This document shows positions 3,123 through 43,190 of a stretch of DNA of 64,000 nt, in pieces. Under the pieces are notes generated by a model. It searched no databases. It was not told where the DNA came from and saw only the letters and a program-made list of their open reading frames with translations. Both the position numbers and the translations under genes were made by a program. The stretch covers positions 49,420,970 to 49,484,969 of the forward strand of contig OX393579.1 of NCBI GenBank assembly GCA_947652605.1, given 5' to 3'. Within the stretch, counting starts at the first letter, position 1; every line of letters starts with the position of its first letter. Source of the DNA: Elmis aenea (Eukaryota; Arthropoda; Insecta; Coleoptera; Elmidae).

Positions 3123-3485
3123 TGTGACGGTCGGTCGAGCGGTTTTCCTTTTTGAGTGTTGGTCGTTGATGTTAAATGGGGGTGGTAGTGTTAGTACGAA
3201 TAATACTAAATGAGGATAACTGTTGTAATTGATTTATTGGTTGTCCTCGTAATAACAATTAGTTGAACTTGATAGACATTTCGAAAGGTTGTATAATTTA
3301 GATAATAATTCGGTTACATAATAAACAATATAAAACAATAGTAAACATGTTACTAGTTTGAAAGCTAGGGACGAAGTCCCTGTATATCTCTAATACTGAA
3401 GGCTAGAGAGTCCAATCTGCAACGCTAGGTGTAATTAATATCCTAGCGGGGCGGCGGCAACTGGAGGAGATAAGTGAACATCACA
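3123..3485 (-). repeat. 3' LTR of the endogenous retrovirus
   Basis: A 363-bp LTR with plus-strand ends TGTGACGG and CATCACA, giving TG...CA ends. By eye it is identical to 10866-11228. On the coding (minus) strand it contains AATAAA at 3233-3238, a candidate polyadenylation signal. Identity of the two LTRs indicates little time since integration. Confidence 0.97.
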
Positions 3486-3496
3486 CTTCCCCTCTT
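3486..3496 (-). other. Polypurine tract
   Basis: On the coding strand this reads AAGAGGGGAAG and directly abuts the 3' LTR. That is the expected place and composition of the plus-strand DNA primer of an LTR retroelement. Confidence 0.93.
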
Positions 3497-3750
3497 AAAT
3501 AAAAAGTTAAACGTAGTTTAATCTTTTTACATCAAATGTAAACAATTACAACATCTTTAAACTTTTAAATTAAAATTGAACATAAGAAATAAAATCAAAA
3601 TTGAATAAACAAGTTGGTTAAATTAATTAATTAGTTTAAAGCATGAAAATTGATAACATAATCAATTGATAAAACCAAAGCATAAGCATAATTAAACAAA
3701 TGAAACTATAAGCTATAAGTGCGACTATTCATACTAAAATGCAACAAAAC

Positions 3751-5701
3751 TTAAAATATTCTACTGCTTCGTCTACCGGAGGGTCGAGCGCCTATTGTGG
3801 AATGCGAAATTTGGTCCTCACGAGGGGTGAGCTGGTGCGATTCTATGATTTCGTCAGAGTTTCGGGAATCAGCACGAGTAGTATCATTCCGATTGTTAAA
3901 AGTTATGCATAAATTTGGTATCATTCCACAACATCGCTTTTCTCCTTTAAACTTACAAACTAACTTATAACAGAGATATAAAACAAACAAAATACATATT
4001 GAATACATAAAATAATAAGTAATCGATGTGGACTTCGATTGAGATGCGTGTCTTAACACTTGATCTGCTATCTCGTCAACCTGAGATAGTTTATAGCTAG
4101 CAACATTTAATTCATCTAAATGAAGTGAGGTTACCTTGTAACCTTTGTTTAATGACAGTTCTGAAATGTTTATGTTATTTTTGTTTTCAATTTCGCAGCA
4201 ATCTAAATCGATATTAAAATTAGGTAGAAAGTTCATAGATAACTCTGATGAAAATGTTCGCTTTGGAATTAATAAAGCTGAACTCGTGTATCCTTTACAG
4301 TAGCTATCGATTTCTATGATTCCTGAATCGGTTAAAATTATGTCAAACGGTACTTTAGCATTCTTGCAGTTTATTACCAAATTTTCAGATTTCGGAATTA
4401 CATATATCCATTTTGTTCCTATTTGAAGTTGATAAAATATAGTTGATTTTAAAGTTACGATTCGAGTGTCGCATATTTTAGGTAATTTGTCTGAGCGGGA
4501 AAATAAAAGCATTTCACATGTATTTACAGTGTTGCTGACAAAAATTGGTTTGGTTTGTTTACAAATTAGTTCATTAGTATTAAAATTTTTACAATTTAAA
4601 ATTTCGTAATCGCTCAACATAAAATAATGCTGTTTAGCATCGCTAACAGCGAAATACTGATTAGAAGGTTGAATGAAAGCATATTTATCGTCGTTATCTA
4701 GTTTTACAGGTAATGGTATAAGTTTATACAAAGAGAACCATTGTTGTTGTATTAAAGGTACTGAAACAATATAAGTTAACCTGGAATTATAATAAAACAC
4801 ATTCAAATTAACAATTCTTAGCAATTCATGTGCACTTTCTATATCTAAAGGTACTACAAAATCTGTTCCAGATGGTAAATTATTTCTTACCTTTTGCAAT
4901 TCATTGATAAACTGAACCGGATTTAAGATTTTAGGATGTAGTATGCCTTTTTGCGCGACTAAAACCGCGTCGATTAACGAATTTATTTCCCTAGAATATT
5001 GATCAGATAAAAATATTAACAAAATTAAATGTTCGTCGATTAATTGTCTTGATTCTAAGATCGATAACTTCTTTGATTCAGTGTTAAAGAACTTTTCAAT
5101 CTTCTTCAAATTCTGGTCTAAAATCTGTTCGTTGTTATTTAAACTAACGATTGTATTGTTAAAGTTTTTAATCGTAACTCGTACGATACTAGATTGCTCT
5201 TTTATTAACGAAACTAACGCTTTTTCGTCATTATTAATTGTAGATATTTTTTCATCATATGACGCAGCGTCGTCTGCGTCCATGGTACCAAACAGGATTT
5301 TGGCTCCTTTACCAATAAAATTTATCAAACCTCTTTTCTTACGTAGGTTACTTTTGTGACCGATAATAATTTCTAATATGTTTTTGTCAATTTGAAGCTG
5401 TTCTACATGCGCGTTCAATAATTTTAGCTGTTTGTCACACATAGTAAAATTTATAAAGAAGTTCTGGTAATCGTAATTAGGGTGCTTGCAATAGCCTTGA
5501 GTTGCAAAAACATATTTCTTTAATAAATCTAACTTAGCAAATAGTAACTTAAGATCTAAATAAGTGATTAAATTCCATTCTTGGTTACTCAGCGACAGTT
5601 TACCAATGCGTTCATAGTATAACCCTGGGGTGTTTTCGAATTTAACATCGTTGTAAAACTCTAGCGTTAAGAGTCGTTGAACCAAGTGGGTAAAAATTAG
5701 T
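3751..5701 (-). CDS. env: Envelope glycoprotein, main exon (errantivirus/baculovirus-F-like Env)
   Basis: A class I fusion-type envelope that would mediate membrane fusion and particle exit or entry. Counting from the first TTG codon (5685), the open frame has 644 codons. Residues 115-118 are a furin-like RKKR followed by a glycine- and hydrophobic-rich stretch with LFGTMD, the arrangement seen in errantivirus Env and baculovirus F proteins. Heptad-like leucine and isoleucine spacing follows. A membrane segment lies at about residues 555-579, with a basic and polar cytoplasmic tail of about 65 residues. There is no ATG at the N-terminus. The frame overlaps the last codons of pol, and a pyrimidine-rich tract ending in CAG at 5704-5702 is a good splice acceptor, so this exon starts at 5701. 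A spliced leader exon (10558-10574) fits in phase and supplies the start. No break is seen. Confidence 0.93.
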
Positions 5702-8700
5702 CTGTAACAGAAGAAATGTATGGTTTTAGACGATTTTTGTGAACTATCTTTAATTTTCGTCCTACTTTAATGGTAACATTGCAGTTCGAATTTATTTCGA
5801 TGATTTCATACGGACCTACAAAATATTTGTCTAATTTTTTACTTTTACCTTTATGTGTAGCTTCGCTTGTAAGCAATACTAAATCTCCTATCCTTAAATC
5901 ATATTGAACAATTTTATTGTCATAATTATACTTATATTTCTCCTTACATTTTAGAAGATTCTCTCGAGCTAATTTGTTACACGTTTGTAACTTGATCTTC
6001 AAATTATTTACATAATCTTCATGTGAATAGATAAACTTGGGATCGCTTGATAGACTTGTCGGAAGAATTGCCTTTTTACCAAAAATTAGTTCAAAAGGGG
6101 TAAATTTCGTAGCTGAATGAGGGGTCGTATTATAAGCAAAAATTGCAAAATCTAGCCACTTTGGCCAATCAGTTTGATCGGATTTGATGTAATGTTTTAA
6201 GTAATCGGCTAGCGTTTGATGGGACCTCTCGAGAGCGCCATTTGACTGAGCATGATAAGCTGATGTATTTAATTTAGAAATTTTGAGAAGTTTGCACACG
6301 CGCTTGAACACGTCACTCATAAAATTCGTTCCTTGGTCAGTTAAAACATACTTAGGTGTTCCAAATTTACATATAATATTTCTAACAAAAATATCGGCAA
6401 CTGTGTGCGCCTCCTGATTAGGCAAAGCAAAAGCTGCAGAAAATTTTGACAAATCGTCTTGAAAAGTAAGAACATATTTTTTTCCGTTTTCAGATAATGG
6501 TAGAGGACCGACTATGTCTAAAAACACCTTTTCAAATGGTTCATTGGAGGTGGTAGTGATTTCCATGGGTATTTTCGTTTTCCTTCTACTTACCTTATTA
6601 ATTTGACAACTACCACATCGTTTGACATAGTTTTTTATATCCTTCTTCATGGAAGGCCATACGAACTTATTTTTAATTTTCTTAAATGTTCGGTAAAAAC
6701 CAGAATGACCACCTACTGGGGTGTCATGATATTCCTTCATAATTTGTTGAATTTCGTCTGGATTTGTTATATTTGTTATTTCATTTTTGCAAACTGTTAC
6801 TACAATATCGGAATCTTTAAATATGTAACGTAAACTGGTTCTTAAAAATTCGTTATCACGTTTACTGTACAATTTCGATATCGCGACCTTATTAACCGAA
6901 TCTTGTAAAAGTTTTTCACGTAAAATTACAAGTTTATCAAATAAAATTTTCTGATCTAATTGATCGTGGCAATGTTCAGTTACGAATAAATAATATATAT
7001 TATAATTATCTTTATTAAATAATATAACTTCGTCTAAATTACGGTTTTCAAAATATTTCGCATTTTTAAATTTGTCATTAAATAACTTGAAATCGCTATT
7101 AAGAAATAGTGATCGATTTTCCATATGCATGTCTTTTGATGTTATACAGATGATTGAAAAATCTCGTGAAACTTGAGAAATAGAAATATTTTCTTCCTTA
7201 ATATTTTTGTTAAAAATGATATGACCTTGCTGGTAGTTTAGAAATTCAGTATACAAATTATTGGATTGATTTACACAAAATATATTGGAATTTAGCGGAT
7301 CTGCAATTTTGATTCGACTTAGAGCGTCAGCATTTTCATTCTTTTTGCCCGATCTGTGAATAATTTCGTAGTCGTACTCTTCGAGTTTTAATCTCATTCG
7401 CATTTGTTTTGAACCTAATTCTCTAGAACCAAATAAGGAAGTGAGACATCTATGATCGGTTATAAGCTTAAATTTAACGCCAAAAATATATGGTCGAAAA
7501 TGTTTGACGGCCCAAACAATAGCTAAAAGTTCTTTTTCCGTTGTATTGTAATTAATTTCAGATTTACTTAAGGTTCGACTCGCGTAGGCGATTGGCTTAT
7601 CGCTACCGAGTTCGCCTTGTGATAAAATAGCTCCGATAGCAAAGTTGCTTGCATCGGTGGTAACTACAAATTCTTTACTAAAATCTGGGTACTGTAATAA
7701 TGGCTCTGAAATTAATATTTCCTTTAAAGTTTCGAAAGAATGTTGCTGTAAACTTGACCATAAAAATTCAGAATTTTTCTTTAACAGTTTGGTTAGCGGT
7801 TTAGAAATCTTGGAAAAATTTGGAATAAACCTCCTATAATAACCTGCTAAACCTAAAAAGCTTTTAATCTCCTTTGCATTAAAAGGAGTCGGAAAATCTT
7901 TAACAGCAGAAATTTTTTTGGGATCAGGACGTATTCCTTGATCTGTAATTAAATGACCTAAGAAAATTACTTCCTTTCGTAAAAATTCGCATTTGAAAGG
8001 ATTAAGTTTTAAATTATGTTTGCGAAATCGCTCAAAAATATTCGTTAATTTCCGATTGTGACTTTCTAAAGATTCTGCGTAAATAACTACGTCGTCCATA
8101 TACACGAAACAATGTAATCCCTGTAAACCGGCCAAAACAGAGTTCATCAACCTTTGGAACGTTGCTGGAGCCCCCTTTAGTCCGAAAGGCATAGCCTTAT
8201 ACTGATAGTGAGAAAAACTGGTACTAAACGCAGTTTTCGGAGCGTCAGTCGGGTCCAGAATTATCTGATGAAACCCGGAAGTAAGATCCAGAGTTGAAAA
8301 ATATTTACAACTCCCTAACTGATCAAGGATATCGACAATGTTTTGCAAGGGAAAGGCATCACCGGTAGTAATACTATTGAGTCCACGAAAATCCACTACC
8401 ACTCTCCACTTTACCGTACCAGAAGCGTCTAACTTCTTTGGTACCACGAGTAAGGGTGCATTGTAGGGACTATTGCTAGGCTCAATAATACCATCGGCTT
8501 CTAGTTCCTTCATTTGTCGTTCGATCTCCTCCTTGTGACAATGAGGGATCCTGTACGGCTTTACGTTAATAGGATTATTGTGAATTGTCGGAATTTTATG
8601 CTGAATTGCACTGGTACGACTTAACTTATCACCAGGCAAATGAAATATATCGTTAAAATCATTACAAATAGAAACTAAACTTTCTCTTTCTTCAACATTT

Positions 8701-9596
8701 AAGTGATTTATACGTAATTGTGACTCTAAAATTTGAATACGCTTGCCTTCGTAATTAGAACCTTGGGCTTGAAAAGAATTATTTGTTTGAGAACCACTGA
8801 TATCAGAAAAAATTTGCACGTTGCAAGACTGTGAATGTTCCGTATAATTTGCATCATTATAATATTTTTTATCACTGTACGGTTCTAAGAAAATATCAGG
8901 GGTATTAATTTCAACTGTAACTTCGTTTAAATTAAGAACGCTTACTCGAGCTTTCTTGCTCTTACATCTTACTAAAGAGTTTGATAAAAACACGTTGGAA
9001 CTCAATTCTACAGACTCAGATATACCTTCAAAACCGTCTGTACAATCTTTGTTTAAAATGTTGACCTCTACAATAACTTGAGAACGAGGCTGTAATAAAA
9101 TAACTTCAGACTTACTGCACAAAGATAATTTAGAATCACCCACACAAAATAATTTGCTTTCGTAATCTATCTTTGCATTATAATAACTTAGAAAATCATT
9201 CCCGATCAAACCTTTATGAGAAATTGGAAAATTGTCCTTGACAATCTGGAATATAAATGGGAATGCATGACCATCCGTACATAAATTAAGTTTGCATGTA
9301 CCAAGGGTTTCAATAGAATTTTCTGTAATACCCTTTAACTTCAGAATTTTAGCAACATCGCACACGATGTCATCTTTTAAAGAACTCACTTTTATGAGAC
9401 TAACATCTGCACCAGTATCGATAATAAAAGAGCTAGGATTATCGACGAACTCCTCGACATAAAAATTAGTAGAATTTGGAGAATTCGAGAGAGTCAGAAT
9501 TTGGGTACAGACACAATTTGTTACTGCATTTAATTTGTTGCGGTTTTTAAATTCGTTGCGGTCTTTGGCGTTCCGCCCACCGAAGACCAATTCTCG
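5697..9596 (-). CDS. pol: Pol polyprotein: protease, reverse transcriptase, RNase H, integrase
   Basis: Replication polyprotein of the element, about 1,300 residues and open throughout. Residue numbers here are from the TTG codon at 9590. The aspartic protease has DTGA at 58-61. Reverse transcriptase has TLDLTSGF (D435) and YMDD at 497-500. RNase H has TTDAS (D646), E685, TDH (D712) and a further aspartate at D755. Integrase has an HHCC zinc module (H955, H962, C992, C995) and a D,D35E core (D1025, D1085, E1121), followed by a C-terminal basic region. There is no ATG. The frame is -1 relative to gag and stays open back to the slippery heptamer at 9596-9602, so it is most likely made as a Gag-Pol fusion. 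The domain order PR-RT-RH-IN is that of Ty3/gypsy elements. All catalytic residues I can check are present. Confidence 0.97.
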   Translation of the reverse strand, partial: RELVFGGRNAKDRNEFKNRNKLNAVTNCVCTQILTLSNSPNSTNFYVEEFVDNPSSFIIDTGADVSLIKVSSLKDDIVCDVAKILKLKGITENSIETLGTCKLNLCTDGHAFPFIFQIVKDNFPISHKGLIGNDFLSYYNAKIDYESKLFCVGDSKLSLCSKSEVILLQPRSQVIVEVNILNKDCTDGFEGISESVELSSNVFLSNSLVRCKSKKARVSVLNLNEVTVEINTPDIFLEPYSDKKYYNDANYTEHSQSCNVQIFSDISGSQTNNSFQAQGSNYEGKRIQILESQLRINHLNVEERESLVSICNDFNDIFHLPGDKLSRTSAIQHKIPTIHNNPINVKPYRIPHCHKEEIERQMKELEADGIIEPSNSPYNAPLLVVPKKLDASGTVKWRVVVDFRGLNSITTGDAFPLQNIVDILDQLGSCKYFSTLDLTSGFHQIILDPTDAPKTAFSTSFSHYQYKAMPFGLKGAPATFQRLMNSVLAGLQGLHCFVYMDDVVIYAESLESHNRKLTNIFERFRKHNLKLNPFKCEFLRKEVIFLGHLITDQGIRPDPKKISAVKDFPTPFNAKEIKSFLGLAGYYRRFIPNFSKISKPLTKLLKKNSEFLWSSLQQHSFETLKEILISEPLLQYPDFSKEFVVTTDASNFAIGAILSQGELGSDKPIAYASRTLSKSEINYNTTEKELLAIVWAVKHFRPYIFGVKFKLITDHRCLTSLFGSRELGSKQMRMRLKLEEYDYEIIHRSGKKNENADALSRIKIADPLNSNIFCVNQSNNLYTEFLNYQQGHIIFNKNIKEENISISQVSRDFSIICITSKDMHMENRSLFLNSDFKLFNDKFKNAKYFENRNLDEVILFNKDNYNIYYLFVTEHCHDQLDQKILFDKLVILREKLLQDSVNKVAISKLYSKRDNEFLRTSLRYIFKDSDIVVTVCKNEITNITNPDEIQQIMKEYHDTPVGGHSGFYRTFKKIKNKFVWPSMKKDIKNYVKRCGSCQINKVSRRKTKIPMEITTTSNEPFEKVFLDIVGPLPLSENGKKYVLTFQDDLSKFSAAFALPNQEAHTVADIFVRNIICKFGTPKYVLTDQGTNFMSDVFKRVCKLLKISKLNTSAYHAQSNGALERSHQTLADYLKHYIKSDQTDWPKWLDFAIFAYNTTPHSATKFTPFELIFGKKAILPTSLSSDPKFIYSHEDYVNNLKIKLQTCNKLARENLLKCKEKYKYNYDNKIVQYDLRIGDLVLLTSEATHKGKSKKLDKYFVGPYEIIEINSNCNVTIKVGRKLKIVHKNRLKPYISSVTD
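5702..5716 (-). promoter_or_regulatory. Putative splice acceptor for env mRNA
   Basis: The minus strand reads TTTCTTCTGTTACAG just before the end of pol. This is a pyrimidine-rich tract followed by CAG. The exon start at 5701 leaves a single base before the env-frame codons, which matches the two bases left over at the donor at 10558. Confidence 0.8.
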
Positions 9597-10525
9597 TTTA
9601 AATTTTTGTCGGATTTACGTTTTTCTTCGTTGAACTTTCGCTTTCGACAATCGGATATGTGATGCCCATATTTTTTACAATAATGACAACTAACGTTTTG
9701 ATTAGACCTAGGAAAATTTGAGGAAGATGGACCAGCGTTATTTGAATCAAATTTTCGTACAAACTCTTGTTTTACATTTTGGGTATCCATTCGTTTAGAA
9801 GATTTTGAATAACATTGAGCCGCGATGTGGCCTGATTTTTTACAATTAAAACATTTAAGTAAATTATTTTGGTTTACCTTTTGATATTTAAAAATTTCGT
9901 TTTTACTAAGAACTTCACGTTCTTCAGAAACAGCTAAACTTACTGCTTCCTCGAATGTTTTGGGATCGCGCGCCTTTACTTGAGTAATTATCGGATCTTT
10001 TAAACCTAGCACGAAAACATGGCGGGCTTGCTTTTTCAACAAATTTTCGTTAGCTTCTTTTACATTTTCATCGTTTTCGCCTAAAGTAACGCTGTCAATG
10101 AGCCTTTCTAGAATGCTTTCAACACGACTAGCAAAAGACATGACATCCTCATTATAATTTTGACGACACGAATGAAGTTCCAATTCCCATTGACCGTGGG
10201 AACGTTTTTCAGCAAAAATTTCTTCTAAATGAAGTCTTAATTGATTCCATGTATCAAACGTTCGATGTTTCGTTAATTTATACGCGCGTCCGGTTAATTT
10301 TAATTTGATAAGTTCGAAAAGAATGGATCGATCATCGGGTTTACAAAGTTTAATTGCTGATTCGCAAGTACTTATGAATTCGGACAACATTTCTCGACTA
10401 CCGTCGAAAACCTTGAGTTGCTTTTCCAGCAATTCAATTTTTAAATAAGTAGGCATCGTTAAAACAGTTGAATCAAACGATTCACTTGAACTTAAATTGT
10501 CGGTATTACTTAGAACAGAATTCAT
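9530..10525 (-). CDS. gag: Gag polyprotein with two CCHC zinc knuckles
   Basis: Structural capsid/nucleocapsid precursor of 331 residues. The open frame continues three codons further upstream to a TTG at 10534, but the first in-frame ATG is at 10525 and is the likely start. Residues 60-150 look like a retrotransposon capsid domain, including a WELELHSCRQ stretch that resembles the usual Gag pattern. Two CX2CX4HX4C knuckles lie at residues 225-238 and 280-293, followed by a lysine- and arginine-rich tail. The frame ends about 21 codons past the slippery site, giving Gag its own C-terminus when no frameshift happens. It lies downstream of the env splice donor, so only unspliced RNA expresses it. 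Confidence 0.95.
   Translation of the reverse strand: MNSVLSNTDNLSSSESFDSTVLTMPTYLKIELLEKQLKVFDGSREMLSEFISTCESAIKLCKPDDRSILFELIKLKLTGRAYKLTKHRTFDTWNQLRLHLEEIFAEKRSHGQWELELHSCRQNYNEDVMSFASRVESILERLIDSVTLGENDENVKEANENLLKKQARHVFVLGLKDPIITQVKARDPKTFEEAVSLAVSEEREVLSKNEIFKYQKVNQNNLLKCFNCKKSGHIAAQCYSKSSKRMDTQNVKQEFVRKFDSNNAGPSSSNFPRSNQNVSCHYCKKYGHHISDCRKRKFNEEKRKSDKNLNENWSSVGGTPKTATNLKTATN
9560..9588 (-). promoter_or_regulatory. Predicted stimulatory hairpin for gag-pol frameshifting
   Basis: On the coding strand GGTCTT at the 5' side pairs with AAGACC at the 3' side (6 bp). Inside it GGCG pairs with CGCC around a GAA loop (4 bp), with a 5-nt bulge on one side. It starts 7 nt after the slippery heptamer, the usual distance for such structures. 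Pairing was judged by eye; no folding energy was calculated. Confidence 0.75.
9596..9602 (-). promoter_or_regulatory. -1 ribosomal frameshift site (UUUAAAC)
   Basis: On the coding strand the heptamer TTTAAAC sits in the gag frame as T TTA AAC, the exact X XXY YYZ phasing of a classical -1 slippery site. Slipping one base back enters the pol frame, which has no stop from here on. A 7-nt spacer then leads to a potential hairpin at 9560-9588. Confidence 0.9.
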
Positions 10526-10555
10526 AGGCCTCAAAATAACATAGAAAATACACTT

Positions 10556-10557
10556 AC
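10556..10557 (-). promoter_or_regulatory. Putative splice donor for env mRNA (GTAAGT)
   Basis: The minus strand reads TATATGTAAGTG, and the consensus donor GTAAGT begins at 10557. It lies between the leader ATG (10574) and the gag ATG (10525). The stop codon of the small leader ORF overlaps the donor (TAA within GTAAGT). Confidence 0.8.
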
Positions 10558-10574
10558 ATATAAAAAATTCTCAT
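10558..10574 (-). CDS. env: Env leader exon (start codon and first residues) / six-codon uORF in unspliced RNA
   Basis: An ATG at 10574 opens five codons plus two bases before the GTAAGT donor. The encoded residues are mostly hydrophobic. In the spliced message the two left-over bases complete a codon with the single base before the env frame at 5701, so the reading continues in phase into Env. The combined N-terminus has the character of a signal peptide and adds 11 residues before the TTG-numbered Env, for 655 in total. In unspliced RNA the same ATG stops after six codons, inside the donor, and the gag ATG follows about 30 nt later. I found no other ATG in the stretch between the LTR and this one. 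This is inferred from sequence only. Confidence 0.75.
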
Positions 10575-10846
10575 CTTATAATTGGCGTAAAATAATGTCG
10601 GAACTTCTGGCAGAATGTGGATAAATCTGTTGGGAACAGATTCGCTTCAACGTTGTGTTGTAGTCACTTTTTTACACTTCCTTTTTTTTTTTTTCACTAA
10701 CAACACTTTGCACAACACAAAAATTTCGGAACTTCTTCTTCTTCTGGGTTTAAAGTTGAACTTGGAGAATTTCAGAAAATTTAGAACTAATCGTACTTTT
10801 ATCACAAGTTGGGACACCAAATTTTTCTTTGTTGCCAATTGTGACA

Positions 10847-10862
10847 CCACACCTTGACGCCA
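10847..10862 (-). other. Putative tRNA primer binding site
   Basis: Three bases inside the 5' LTR end the coding strand reads TGGCGTCAAGGTGTGG. It starts with TGG, which would pair with a tRNA CCA end. I cannot name the tRNA. A second TGG-starting stretch (TGGTGTCAC) lies at 10841-10849 as an alternative. Confidence 0.55.
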
Positions 10863-10865
10863 GTT

Positions 10866-11228
10866 TGTGACGGTCGGTCGAGCGGTTTTCCTTTTTGAGT
10901 GTTGGTCGTTGATGTTAAATGGGGGTGGTAGTGTTAGTACGAATAATACTAAATGAGGATAACTGTTGTAATTGATTTATTGGTTGTCCTCGTAATAACA
11001 ATTAGTTGAACTTGATAGACATTTCGAAAGGTTGTATAATTTAGATAATAATTCGGTTACATAATAAACAATATAAAACAATAGTAAACATGTTACTAGT
11101 TTGAAAGCTAGGGACGAAGTCCCTGTATATCTCTAATACTGAAGGCTAGAGAGTCCAATCTGCAACGCTAGGTGTAATTAATATCCTAGCGGGGCGGCGG
11201 CAACTGGAGGAGATAAGTGAACATCACA
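10866..11228 (-). repeat. 5' LTR of the endogenous retrovirus
   Basis: A 363-bp copy that appears identical to 3123-3485 and is followed by GTAC at 11229-11232. As the 5' LTR it should carry the promoter for all viral RNAs. I see no clear TATA box and do not call one. Confidence 0.97.
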
Positions 11229-14189: not shown

Positions 14190-15545
14190 ATTGATTGCAA
14201 AACCAACCAAAGTCCATTAATTATTAATTGGAATAATTAGGTGATTTGAAAAAATAAAGAATTAAAATGGATCAATTTTAATAACACCTCAGTAGATCTT
14301 CAAAAACACATTAAGTTTAATTTTTTTGTGAAACCGTAATATACAGTGTCATTCAAAAAGGCTGCAACAAATGGAAAAAAAATTATTATCGATTTCTCAG
14401 AAAATGGTATTCTTCATAAAAGTTGGTGCATGGTCTAAAACTAATTTTAAGAAAAACAAAAGTTTAATGAAAGTCATAGGACACTACATTTTAGCGATTT
14501 TTGAAATATTCACAAGAGTGAAGTGCCCTTATTTCAAGAGATACAATTTTTTTATGGGAAATTGTTATTTAGAATCCAAAAATAAGATCATGTTACATTA
14601 ATTTTAGTTTTTTTTTTATTATCTAATGTACCTACTCTAATGTTATGTACTTATATTCACAATTTATTGTGCATTTGAAATAAATTGTGAATTTAATTAC
14701 AAGTGGGAAGTGGATCCATGGACAGTACGTAGAACGTAGAAACTAAAACAATACAGACATCTAAAGTTAATGTCACTTTTGTGTGATACAGCGTTGAAAA
14801 AAAAAAACGTTTTGTTAATTTGCAACATTTATTAATGAAGACATCATAACAAAAATGTTTCACTTAGCACAGTCGCAAGATTATTGAAATAGTTAAGTTT
14901 TTCTTTAAAAAATTTTTAATTTGATCGTCAAAATTTAAATCTAAATTTTAGATTGTATATAACTTTTTCCCATACATTTTTTTTTGTATCTCTTAAAATA
15001 AGGGCACTTTACTTTTGCTAATATTTCAAAAATCGCTAAAATCTAGTGTCCTATGACCTTTTATTGAACTTTTTTTATCTTAAAATTAGTTTAATGCACC
15101 AACTTTTATCAAGAATATAATTTTCTGAAAAACCGATAATAAAAAACTTTTCCATTTGTTGCAGACTTTTTGAATGTTAAAATTTCTTAAAAATTAAAAA
15201 TTGGAATTTGACCGTCAAAATTTAAATCTAGTGTTATTTTTAGATTCTAAATAATTTTTCCTATCACTTTTTTGTATCCCTTAAAAAAGGCACTTTACTC
15301 TTGCGACAATTTCAAAAATCGCTAATATCTAGTGTCTTATGACTTTTTATTGATTTTTTTTTCTTTTTAAAACAAGTTTTAGACCATGTACCAACTTAAG
15401 AATAAAATTTTCTGAGAAATCAATAATAATTTTTTTTCTCCATTTGTTGCTGAGTTTTTGAATGACACTGTAAATTAATCAGTTTTTTCAATATTCCCAA
15501 AAGTTAGGTATAATGGACTTAAATTGTTTTTGCAATCTGCGATTC
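14190..15545. mobile_element. Nested MITE: outer element carrying an inserted CAGTGTCATT fold-back element (family D)
   Basis: Outer ends are an imperfect inverted repeat (GATTGCAAAACCAACC near 14192; its complement near 15515-15540). Inside, 14343-15470 has ends TA-CAGTGTCATTCAAAAAG and its complement CACTG-TA, with arms of about 220 bp carrying the AAAGTTGGTGCATGG block, plus a second partial copy of the right arm. TA flanks and CAGTG ends suit a non-autonomous IS630/Tc1/mariner-type element. Family D relatives lie at 37328-38295 and 49535-50962. No transposase is present. Confidence 0.8.
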
Positions 15546-39020: not shown

Positions 39021-39319
39021 CGACTCGCGCTTCGCGCTCGTCGAGAGTAACAACGTAGAAATCTCTTTTATCGACAATCGACTACTCGCGCTTCGCGCTC
39101 GTCGAGGTGAGTTAATTTTATTTTATCAATAATCGAGATGCAAATGAGTAGAATTCTCTTTTATAGATAATCGGAAACTCGCGCTTCGCGCTCGTCAAAG
39201 GCGTCTACGTAGAATTCTCTTTTATCAATCATGGACGACTCGCGCTACGCGTTCGACAAAAGCGACTACGGGGAATACTCCTATGTCAATAATAGAATTC
39301 TCTTTTATCATTCATAGTC
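39021..39319 (+). repeat. Minisatellite with CTCGCGCTTCGCGCTCGTC units
   Basis: Four imperfect units of roughly 70 bp, each with the hairpin ACTCGCGCTTCGCGCTCGT and the phrase GAATTCTCTTTTAT(C/A)(A/G)AT. The same phrase returns at 40740-40822 between two blocks of the main array. Confidence 0.85.
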
Positions 39320-42300
39320 AATCATATGCGCTGGATACTGGCAAAGTTTTTGGCCTTCGCCCGAAAACTTGGCACCGCGCTCGCTCCCAATGAAAGAGAA
39401 TACTGTATGCTCTGGATACTGGCAAAGTTTCCGGCCTTCGAAAACTTGGCACCGAACTACTCCCGCTCCGCGCTCGCAGCCAATGAGAGAGAATACAGTA
39501 TGCGCTGGATACTGGCAAAGTTTCCGGCCTTCGGCCGAAAACTTGGCACCGCACTACTCGCGCTCCGCGCTCGCGCCCCATGACAGAGATTACAGTATGC
39601 ACTGGATACTGGCAAAGTTTCCGGCCTTCGGCCGAAAACTTGGCCCCGAACTGCTCACGCTCCGCGCTCGCAGCCAATGAGAGAGAATAAAGTATGCGCT
39701 GGTTACTGGCAAAGTTTCCGGCCTTCGGCCGAAAACTTGGCACCGCGCTCGCGCCCAATGAGAGAGAATACTGTATGCGCTGGATACTGGCAAAGTTTCC
39801 GGCCTTCGGCCTTATACTTGACACCGAACTACTCGCGCTCCGCGCTCGCAGCCAATGAGATAGAATACAGTATGCGCTGGATACTGGCACAGTTTCCGGC
39901 TTTCGGCCGAAAACTTGGCACCGCGCTCGCGCCCAATGAAAGATAATACTGTATGCGCTGGATACTGGCAAAGTTTCCGGCCTTCGAAAACTTGGCACCG
40001 AACTACTCCCGCTCCGCGCTCGCAGCCAATGAGAGAGAATACAGTATGCACTGGATACAGGCAAAGTTTCCGGCCTTCGGCCGAAAACTTGGCACCGCAA
40101 TACTCGCGCTCCGCGCTCGCGCCCTATGACAGAGAATGCAGTATGCACTGGAAATTGGTAAAGTTTACGGCCTTCGGCCGAAAACTTGGCGCCGAACTAC
40201 TCGCGCTCCGCGCTCGCGGTCAATGAGAGAGAATAAAGTATGCACTGGATACTGGCAAAGTTTCCGGCCTTTGGCTGAAAACTTGGCACCCAACTTCTCG
40301 CGCTCCGCGCTCGCGCCCAATGAGAGAGAATACAGTATGCGCTGGTTATTGGCAAAGTTTCCGGCTTTCGGCCGAAAACGGCACCGCGCTCGCGCCCAAT
40401 GACAGAGAATACAGTATGCACTGGATACTGGCAAAGTTTCCGGGCTTCGGCCGAAAACTTGGCACCGCGCTCGCGCCCAATGAGAGAGAATACTGTATGC
40501 GCTAGATACTGGCAAAGTTTACGGCCTTCGGCCGAAAACTTGGCACCGAACTACTCGCGCTCCGCGCTCGCGGCCAATGAGAGAGAATAAAGTATGCGCT
40601 GGGTACTGTCACGGAACTTCTCGCGCTCAGCGCTCGCGCCCAATGAGAGAGAATACTGTATGCGCTAGATACTGGCAAAGTTTCCGGCCTTCGGCCGAAA
40701 ACTTGGCACCGAACTACTCGCGCTCGCGGCCAATGAGAGAGAATTCTCTTTTTTCAATCATAGACGACTCGCGCTCGACAACAACAAATACATAGAATTC
40801 TCTTTTATCAATCATAGTCAATCATATGCGCTGGATACTGGCAAAGTTTTTGCCTTCGGCCGAAAACTTGGCACCGCGCTCGCGCCCAATGAATGAGAAT
40901 ACTGTATGCTCTGGATACTGGCAAAGTTTCCGGCCTTCGAAAACTTGGCACCGAACTACTCCCGCTCCGCGCTCGCAGCCAATGACAGAGAATACAGTAT
41001 GCACTGGATACTGGCAAAGTTTCCGGCCTTCGGCCGAAAACTTGGCACCGCACTACTCACGCTCCGCGCTCGCGGCCAATGAGAGAGAATAAAGTATGCA
41101 CTGGATACTGGCAAAGTTTCCGGCCTTCGGCCGAAAACTTGGCACCCAACTTCTCGCGCTCCGCGCTCGCGCCCAATGAGAGAGAATACTGTATGCGCTG
41201 GATACTGGCATAGTTTCCGGCCTTCGGCCGAAAACTTGGCACCGAACTACTCGCGCTCCGCGCTCGCAGCCAATGAGATAGAATACAGTATGCGCTGGAT
41301 ACTGGCAAAGTTTCCGGCTTTCGGCCGAAAACTTGGCACCGCGCTCGCGCCCAATGAAAGAGAATACTGTATGCGCTGGATACTGGCAAAGTTTCCGGCC
41401 TTCGAAAACTTGGCACCGAACTACTCCTTCTCCACGCTCGCAGCCAATGACAGAGAATACAGTATGCACTGGATACTGGCAAAGTTTCCGGCCTTCGGCC
41501 GAAAACTTGGCACCGAACTACTCACGCTCCGCGCTCGCGGACAATGAGAGAGAATAAAGTATGCACTGGATACTGGCAAAGATTCCGGCCTTCGGCCGAA
41601 AACTTGGCACCCAACTTCTCGCGCTCCGCGCTCGCGCCCAATGAGAGAATACTGTATGCGCTGGATGCTGGCATAGTTTCCGGCCTTCGGCCGAAAACTT
41701 GGCACCGAACTACTCGCGCTCCGCGCTCGCAGCCAATGAGATAGAATACAGTATGCGCTGGATACTGGCAAAGTTTCCGGCTTTCGGCCGAAAACTTGGC
41801 ACCGCGCTCGCGCCCAATGAAAGAGAATACTGTATGCGCTGGATACTGGCAAAGTTTCCGTTCTTCGAAAACTTGGCACCGAACTACTCCCGCTCCGAGC
41901 TCGCAGCCAATGAGAGAGAATACAGTATGCGCTGGATACAGGCAAAGTTTCCGGCCTTCGGCCGAAAACTTGGCGCCGCACTACTCGCGCTCCGCGCTCG
42001 CGCCCCATGACAGAGAATACAGTATGCACTGGAAATTGGCAAAGTTTACGGCCTTCGGCCGAAAACTTGCCACCGAACTACTCGCGCTCCGCGCTCGCGG
42101 TCAATGAGAGAGAATAAAATATGCACTGGATACTGGCAAAGTTTCCGGCCTTCGAAAACTTGGCACCGAACTACTCCTTCTCCGCGTTTGCAGCCAATGA
42201 GAGAGAATACAGTATGCGCTGGATACAGGCAAAGTTTCCGGCCTTCGGCCGAAAACTTGGCGCCGCACTACTCGCGCTCCGCGCTCGCGCCCCATGACGG

Positions 42301-43190
42301 CCGAAAACTTGCCACCGAACTACTCGCGCTCCGCGCTCGCGGTCAATGAGAGAGAATAAAATATGCACTGGATACTGGCAAAGTTTCCGGCCTTCGAAAA
42401 CTTGGCACCGAACTACTCCTTCTCCGCGTTTGCAGCCAATGACAGAGAATACAGTATGCACTGGATACTGGCAAAGTTTCCGGCCTTCGGCCGAAAACTT
42501 GGCACCGAACTACTCACGCTCCGCGCTCGCGGACAATGAGAGAGAATAAAGTATGCACTGGATACTGGCAAAGTTTCCGGCCTTCGGCCGAAAACTTGGC
42601 ACCCAACTTCTCGCGCTCCGCGCTCGCGCCCAATGAGAGAATACTGTATGCGCTGGATGCTGGCATAGTTTCCGGCCTTCGGCCGAAAACTTGGAACCGA
42701 ACTACTCGCGCTCCGCGCTCGCAGCCAATGAGATAGAATACAGTATGCGCTGGATACTGGCAAAGTTTTCGGCTTTCGGCCGAAAACTTGGCACCGCGCT
42801 CGCGCCCAATGAAAGAGAATACTGTATGCGCTGGATACTGGCAAAGTTTCCGTTCTTCGAAAACTTGGCACCGAACTACTCCCGCTCCGAGCTCGCAGCC
42901 AATGAGAGAGAATACAGTATGCGCTGGATACAGGCAAAGTTTCCGGCCTTCGGCTGAAAACTTGGCACCTAACTTCTCGCGCTCCGCGCTCGCGCCCAAT
43001 GAGAGAGAATACAGTATGCGCTGGTTACTGGCAAAGTTTCCGGCCTTCGGCCGAAAACTTGGCACCGCGCTCGCGCCCAATGACAGAGAATACAGTATGC
43101 ACTGGATACTGGCAAAGTTTCCGGGCTTCGGCCGAAAACTTGGCACCGCGCTCGCGCCCATTGAGAGAGAATACTGTATGCGCTAGATAC
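39320..43190. repeat. GC-rich satellite-like tandem array of 81-97-bp monomers
   Basis: About 40 monomers. Type 1 (about 97 bp) has the palindrome GGCCTTCGGCC plus CTCGCGCTCCGCGCTCG. Type 2 (about 81 bp) lacks the CTCCGCGCTCG half. Type 3 (about 91 bp) has TTCGAAAAC in place of the palindrome. Every monomer carries CTGGCAAAGTTTCCGG and ATGAGAGAGAATA or close variants. Higher-order structure is visible: the block starting at 39323 restarts at 40823 (1,500 bp apart), and a run at 41561 repeats at 42553 (992 bp apart). All frames within are by-products of the periodicity. The last monomer is cut at 43190. Confidence 0.95.

What the first reader, a model, noticed from the sequence alone, without database searches (positions are those of the whole stretch)
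5701..10574. Env start supplied by a spliced leader exon with a phase-matched junction
Env lacks an ATG at its N-terminus. A leader ATG (10574) lies 17 nt before a consensus GTAAGT donor, and a pyrimidine tract with CAG sits at the end of pol (5702). Phases match exactly (two bases plus one), and the short leader contributes hydrophobic residues to what looks like a signal peptide. The same ATG in unspliced RNA gives a six-codon ORF that stops within the donor, just before the gag ATG. One ATG could thus serve Env after splicing and act as a short uORF for Gag before splicing.
Basis: partly seen in the sequence, partly recalled or inferred. Interest (0 to 1): 0.88.

Follow-up and report, generated by a model that had tools for sequence, protein, structure and literature searches.

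The report
Spliced-leader start codon of insect retrovirus Env
A virus-like mobile element in an insect-sized genome appears to borrow the start of its envelope gene from a tiny upstream exon by RNA splicing, a design already described for Drosophila relatives and seen in ten element families of this one genome.

Summary
The minus strand holds a young-looking errantivirus-type provirus (identical 363-nt LTRs, GTAC duplication) whose Env (Baculo_F) exon has no ATG before its conserved domain. A leader ATG (10574) opens a 17-nt exon ending at GTAAGT (10557); the best-scoring of 59 AGs around the env start (exon base 5701) supplies exactly the missing base.

Relatives in the same genome support the Env half. 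I could read both ends in 16 families. Of the 15 tabulated, all 8 with no methionine between acceptor and conserved domain have a leader ATG open to a donor in the matching phase; of the 7 with such a methionine, 2 have an in-frame leader start (P 0.007, families not independent). The 5 whose methionine is followed by a strongly hydrophobic stretch have none. So the leader ATG follows Env's need. The arrangement is published for Drosophila ZAM, Beagle and springer subclades.

The uORF half is only partly supported. The short ORF exists, but its stop inside the donor follows automatically from phase 2 plus GTRA, a second 3-codon uORF also precedes gag, and 3 of those 5 families have no ATG in the leader stretch examined. 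It may tune Gag; nothing here shows that it does. No RNA evidence was available.

The parts
10866..11228 (-). 5' LTR, 363 nt
   Evidence: identical to the 3' LTR over 363 of 363 bases; GTAC on both outer sides
3123..3485 (-). 3' LTR, 363 nt
   Evidence: identical to the 5' LTR
10850..10862 (-). putative primer binding site (TGGCGTCAAGGTG), just inside the 5' LTR
   Evidence: position and TGG start, by eye; used as left edge of the leader; the tRNA was not identified
10558..10574 (-). leader exon: ATG plus 14 nt, 17 nt, ends in phase 2
   Evidence: identical in the 3 copies found
10551..10557 (-). 5' splice site GTAAGTG (predicted)
   Evidence: only GTRAGT between putative primer site and gag ATG; rank 2 of 85 GT sites; the same 7 letters are the springer donor whose use was confirmed by long reads (PMC13097621, passages)
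10554..10574 (-). uORF in unspliced RNA: six codons and TAA, stop inside the donor
10531..10542 (-). second uORF: three codons and a stop, between donor and gag ATG
   Evidence: stop kept in 3 of 3 copies, once as TAA instead of TGA
9530..10525 (-). gag, 331 aa (zinc knuckle; Retrotrans_gag below its cut-off)
5697..9614 (-). pol open frame, 1305 aa (reverse transcriptase, RNase H, integrase), overlapping the end of gag in another frame (-1 by arithmetic)
5702..5717 (-). 3' splice site ATTTCTTCTGTTACAG (predicted), inside the last codons of pol
   Evidence: rank 1 of 59 AGs between 6300 and 5300; GTTACAG is also the springer acceptor named in PMC13097621
3751..5701 (-). env exon: Baculovirus F-type envelope protein, no ATG before the conserved domain
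   Evidence: PF12259 E 1.4e-61; first ATG 86 residues into the exon; R120, K122, R123 of a furin-like site invariant among 11 aligned Env proteins

Best explanation
This is an errantivirus-type endogenous retrovirus whose Env is made from a once-spliced RNA. The 17-nt leader exon gives the start codon, four more codons and two bases; splicing from 10558 to 5701 completes the sixth codon and continues into a hydrophobic stretch, so that the signal peptide is encoded across the junction. In full-length RNA the same AUG cannot reach env and is closed at once by the stop that the phase-2 donor itself contains, which keeps it from running into gag. Gag is then reached by reinitiation or leaky scanning past this and a second short uORF. 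Shown here: sequence, phases, presence across families, and that the leader ATG goes with the lack of a signal-like start in the env exon. Inferred: that splicing happens at these sites, that the AUG is used, and any effect on Gag.
For: Exact letters and phases. An env search gave 69 places in the genome; I read the env start at 32 of them and sorted these by eye into 18 families; both ends could be read in 16. With F18 left out as tentative, 15 families: no methionine between acceptor and conserved domain in 8 (F0 window, F3, F5, F13, F17, F19, F20, F21), in-frame leader ATG in 8 of 8; methionine present in 7, in-frame leader start in 2 (F4 whole ATG, F10 split AU|G) and not in F1, F2, F11, F12, F16; Fisher P 0.007, families not independent. 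If only a methionine followed by a strongly hydrophobic stretch counts (threshold set after seeing the data; F10 lies just under it), 10 of 10 against 0 of 5, P 0.0003. Of the 10 leader families, 8 have exactly one GTRAGT between primer site (F10: start of the piece) and gag ATG, reached by an open ATG in phase 2 in 8 of 8; F20 has two, one reached; F5 has none (its site is GTAACT). Exon lengths 17, 26, 20, 20, 2, 26, 53, 20, 29, 26 are all 2 modulo 3. The top-ranked acceptor has the matching phase in 9 of 10. Integrase tree: leader families lie on both sides of its well-supported central branch, down to 26% identity to the window; the own-ATG state of F1, F2, F11, F12, F16 needs at least three changes. 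The 3 copies of the window's family keep leader exon, donor and acceptor letter for letter. Published junctions of the same kind in Drosophila (PMC12992720).
Against: No RNA. No spliced retrocopy found: patterns for F13, F16, F17 and F19 gave 0 matches each, the single match for the window's family is an AT-rich chance one, and the F20 pattern did not complete. The exon side of the donor (TAT) is far from consensus, and one other GT (10852) scores slightly higher. In the window alone the leader frame is not the most hydrophobic of the three. F4 has an in-frame leader ATG although its env exon has a methionine. Phase 2 may be inherited from one ancestor, so the ten families are not ten tests. 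Family sorting was by eye; the acceptors of F20 (by motif) and F11 (second in rank) were not the top-ranked ones; about half of the 69 env places were not read.
Confidence: 0.87

Rival explanations
1. Same Env splicing, and in addition the leader AUG is kept as a regulatory uORF that lowers or gates Gag from unspliced RNA.
For: The uORF exists in 10 of 10 leader families, is 1 to 18 codons long, ends inside the donor and stops 17 to 208 nt before the gag ATG. Leader AUGs have a purine at -3 in 6 of 9 families, the gag AUGs behind them in 3 of 10, against 5 of 6 in the other families (F18 among them); Fisher P 0.12 for the gag comparison, a hint only.
Against: The stop is forced by phase 2 plus GTRA. 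Of the five families with a signal-like own env start, three (F1, F11, F16) have no ATG in the leader stretch examined (85, 420 and 369 nt), so Gag does not need it there. Extra uORFs lie between donor and gag ATG in F0, F5, F10, F20 and F21, and the window's LTR has ATGs that may precede it.
Confidence: 0.3
2. Env starts at a non-AUG codon or at a downstream AUG in the env exon, and the leader ATG is a chance match.
For: An open phase-2 ATG near the donor arises in 14% of shuffles of this leader.
Against: The first env-exon ATG lies 86 residues in, inside the Baculo_F match; 8 of 8 comparable families have the in-frame leader ATG; other ATGs are absent between primer site and leader ATG.
Confidence: 0.04
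3. Splicing uses another donor, for example AAG|GTGTGG at 10852 or a site inside gag, as in the Idefix subclade.
For: 10852 scores slightly higher than 10557 on a simple consensus (4.1 against 3.8); donors inside gag are known in Drosophila (PMC12992720).
Against: 10852 lies in the putative primer binding site, with no ATG between the LTR and it; the best sites inside gag score lower (3.6 and 2.4).
Confidence: 0.05

Closest known systems
ZAM and Beagle subclades of Drosophila insect endogenous retroviruses (PMC12992720, passages seen)
   [quoted passage not shown] F-type Env
   Different: Different genome; sequence kinship to these named elements was not tested; no RNA here. The word uORF does not occur in that paper's main text (0 occurrences).
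springer errantivirus (PMC12992720; PMC13097621, passages)
   Same: same donor letters GTAAGTG and acceptor letters GTTACAG; spliced and unspliced RNAs seen by long reads
   Different: springer gives only an AU dinucleotide; the window gives 17 nt with a whole AUG. Family F10 of this genome looks springer-like (AT|GTGAGT, acceptor followed by G).
gypsy and the Idefix subclade (PMC8096092; PMC12992720; passages)
   Same: env start supplied from an upstream exon
   Different: there the upstream piece comes from within gag
Rous sarcoma virus (PMC5035971, passages)
   Same: gag AUG at nt 380 and splice donor at nt 397, nearly the same spacing; short uORFs before gag with debated roles. That its Env starts on the gag AUG is recalled, from no call.
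   Different: there the AUG next to the donor is gag's own; here it is a separate AUG closed by a stop

Membership tests
Errantivirus-type insect endogenous retrovirus (Metaviridae) | LTRs, short target duplication, gag, pol with RT-RNase H-integrase | tested here: met
   identical 363-nt LTRs, GTAC on both sides; domains
Errantivirus-type insect endogenous retrovirus (Metaviridae) | F-type envelope gene after pol | tested here: met
   PF12259 E 1.4e-61
Errantivirus-type insect endogenous retrovirus (Metaviridae) | Env from a spliced subgenomic RNA | not testable with these tools
   no RNA data; sites, phases and comparison only
[quoted passage not shown]
   17-nt exon, phase 2, acceptor phase 2; a prediction from DNA
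ZAM/Beagle subclade | grouping with ZAM or Beagle in a Pol tree | not tested
   no named Drosophila elements were at hand; the tree has families of this genome only
springer-type split AUG | upstream exon gives only AU before the donor, G comes from the env exon | tested here: not met
   the window's donor does follow AT (10559-10558), but its env exon begins with A; of the families read, F10 meets it
Regulatory uORF | translated, and alters downstream initiation | not testable with these tools
   ORF present; no profiling or reporter data

The most novel reading that the evidence does not exclude
In this lineage of retroviruses the 5' splice site is at once an exon border and the stop codon of a minimal uORF: phase 2 plus GTRAGT turns one AUG into an Env start when the RNA is spliced and into a self-closing uORF of 1-18 codons when it is not, and that closure has been selected because it protects Gag from an overlapping uORF. 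Family F10 would be the extreme case: unspliced RNA reads AUG-stop, and splicing rebuilds the AUG as the Env start.
Probability: 0.25. Interest if true: 0.6.

Novelty: new member of a known kind. Interest (0 to 1): 0.38.

Why it matters
It indicates that supplying the Env start by splicing is spread over deeply diverged errantiviruses in one genome, and that the leader AUG comes and goes with a signal-like start in the env exon. That gives a natural experiment on how envelope start sites move, and a concrete set of leaders in which to ask how Gag is translated behind an upstream AUG.

Tried and rejected
Spliced retrocopies as genomic proof of the junction: gapped-pattern searches gave nothing for F13, F16, F17 and F19; the one match for the window family (L081) is AT-rich chance, with only 11-12 matching letters of leader and env exon at that place; F20 unanswered. 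Env relatives in IMG/VR viral contigs: 16 stretches matched a pattern, none confirmed. Env relatives in the protein database: 15 proteins at E <= 1e-10 among the 7995 candidates scored; of the four I read one (P0002) begins with a hydrophobic stretch of unknown exon structure and three begin close to the conserved part, so they say nothing about leaders. Families dropped: F9 and F22, whose 5' halves were not found (F9 also had no integrase match, and F22 was not put in the tree). F18 was kept apart, because its only phase-matched leader candidate (16 nt, phase 1, like its acceptor) lies on the LTR side of its primer site. About half of the 69 env places were not read. The stop inside the donor as evidence by itself was rejected: it follows from the phase. 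Literature: errantivirus + upstream open reading frame + gag gave 0 papers; retrovirus + uORF + splice donor + gag + reinitiation gave 4, none on insect elements by title; errantivirus + env + splice donor + start codon gave 2. The library is limited to open licences.
Full report
What is there. The minus strand of 3123-11228 holds an errantivirus-type provirus: two LTRs of 363 nt, identical in 363 of 363 positions, with GTAC on either outer side, gag (331 aa, zinc knuckle), pol (1305 aa, RT, RNase H, integrase) and an env open frame of 671 aa whose exon part matches Baculovirus F protein at E 1.4e-61.

The leader ATG is at 10574, the exon ends at 10558, the donor is GTAAGTG, the acceptor CAG ends at 5702, and two plus one bases make a codon. 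The env exon has no ATG for 86 residues. The acceptor is the best of 59 AGs within a kilobase and the donor second of 85 GTs, by a simple score that I built from recalled consensus frequencies. Between the putative primer site and the leader ATG there is no ATG in 288 nt, against 4.0 expected in shuffles (P 0.004). On the other hand, an open ATG in that phase near the donor arises in 14% of shuffles, and in the window the leader frame is not the most hydrophobic of the three. From this element alone the case would be fair, not strong.

An env search of the same genome gave 69 places. I read the env start at 32 of them and sorted these by eye, on their N-terminal letters, into 18 families. In 16 the leader could be read too, apart from the env piece; F9 and F22 had no findable 5' half, and F18 is tentative. 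Of the other 15, eight have no methionine between the acceptor and the conserved domain, and 8 of 8 have a leader ATG that runs open to a donor and leaves two bases over: the window and F3, F5, F13, F17, F19, F20, F21. Seven have such a methionine; 2 of 7 have an in-frame leader start: F4 (a whole ATG) and F10 (a split one, AT before GTGAGT and G after the acceptor). Fisher P is 0.007 with families taken as independent, which they are not. The methionines of F4 are not followed by a hydrophobic stretch and those of F10 only moderately so; with a threshold chosen after seeing this, the split is 10 of 10 against 0 of 5 (P 0.0003). An earlier count of mine had misplaced F4.

Donors and phases. 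In 8 of the 10 leader families there is exactly one GTRAGT between primer site (for F10, the start of the piece held) and gag ATG, so there was no choice of donor; F20 has two and F5 none (GTAACT). Exon lengths run from 2 to 53 nt and are all 2 modulo 3, as expected if they are translated through the junction. The best-scoring acceptor has the matching phase in 9 of 10; in F20 I picked it by its GTTACAG motif.

Control families. F1, F11 and F16 have an env ATG shortly after the acceptor (in F11 the acceptor is second in rank) and no ATG in the leader stretch examined (85, 420 and 369 nt); F12 has two tiny closed ORFs; F2 has a leader ATG in the wrong phase, an AT|GTAAGT that would give ATA, and an alternative AUG-free donor upstream. 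In an integrase tree of 16 families (F9 gave no match, F22 was not put in) the own-ATG state of these five needs at least three changes, while leader families lie on both sides of the well-supported central branch, down to 26% identity to the window. The tree is poorly resolved: 4 of 13 inner branches are well supported. F18 has a phase-1 acceptor and a phase-1 leader candidate of 16 nt on the LTR side of its primer site; if real, both sides changed phase together.

Hydrophobic leaders. Over nine families (F10 has only two bases) the in-frame leader peptides without the methionine average 1.77 on the Kyte-Doolittle scale, the other frames 0.32 and -0.12; 15 of 19683 choices of one frame per family reach the observed sum. 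This fits signal peptides built across the junction. I did not predict a signal peptide on the joined product (see referred steps).

The uORF. In unspliced RNA the leader AUG meets a stop in the donor, because NNG followed by TAA or TGA is what a phase-2 exon plus GTAAGT, GTGAGT or GTAACT spells. So the six-codon ORF is a consequence of the Env design, not a separate finding. It might still matter: in 10 of 10 leader families it ends before the gag ATG, 17 to 208 nt upstream, whereas the out-of-phase leader ATG of F2 would run 41 nt into gag. The window has a second uORF of three codons, whose stop is kept in 3 of 3 copies, once by TAA in place of TGA. The gag AUG of leader families has a purine at -3 in 3 of 10, against 5 of 6 elsewhere (P 0.12). 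The LTR holds ATGs at its positions 5, 138, 167 and 207; the last three may lie in the RNA, depending on the unknown start site. None of this shows a regulatory role.

What is known. [quoted passage not shown] Springer's donor GTAAGTG, whose use was confirmed by long reads, and its acceptor GTTACAG are letter for letter those of the window (PMC13097621, passages). So the Env half is a new member of a known kind. I found no paper in the held library on a uORF in these elements, with the searches named.

Limits. No RNA or protein data; one genome; families sorted by eye and about half of the env places not read; splice scores from recalled frequencies; spliced retrocopies not found.

Noticed in passing
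window 10542-10531 (minus strand); L002, L003: Second uORF of three codons between donor and gag ATG; its stop is kept in 3 of 3 copies although one copy has TAA for TGA.
   Followed up: partly
L046 and L023 (family F10): Springer-like split start: AT before a GTGAGT donor, G after the acceptor; unspliced RNA reads ATG TGA. A further 11-codon uORF ends in a TGA that overlaps the gag ATG.
   Followed up: partly
L057, L074, L058 (family F18): Possible leader exon on the LTR side of the primer site, with phase 1 at both donor and acceptor, which would be a coupled change of phase.
   Followed up: partly
window 14337-15477: Cluster of inverted and direct repeats of 35-122 nt at 71-93% similarity; nature unknown.
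   Followed up: no
window 39318-43182: Eight open frames of 152-292 aa; the five tested have no Pfam match at E <= 0.001.
   Followed up: partly
genome G000: 69 F-type env matches, in 18 families among the 32 places read, many with open env frames: a rich set of errantivirus-type elements in one genome.
   Followed up: partly
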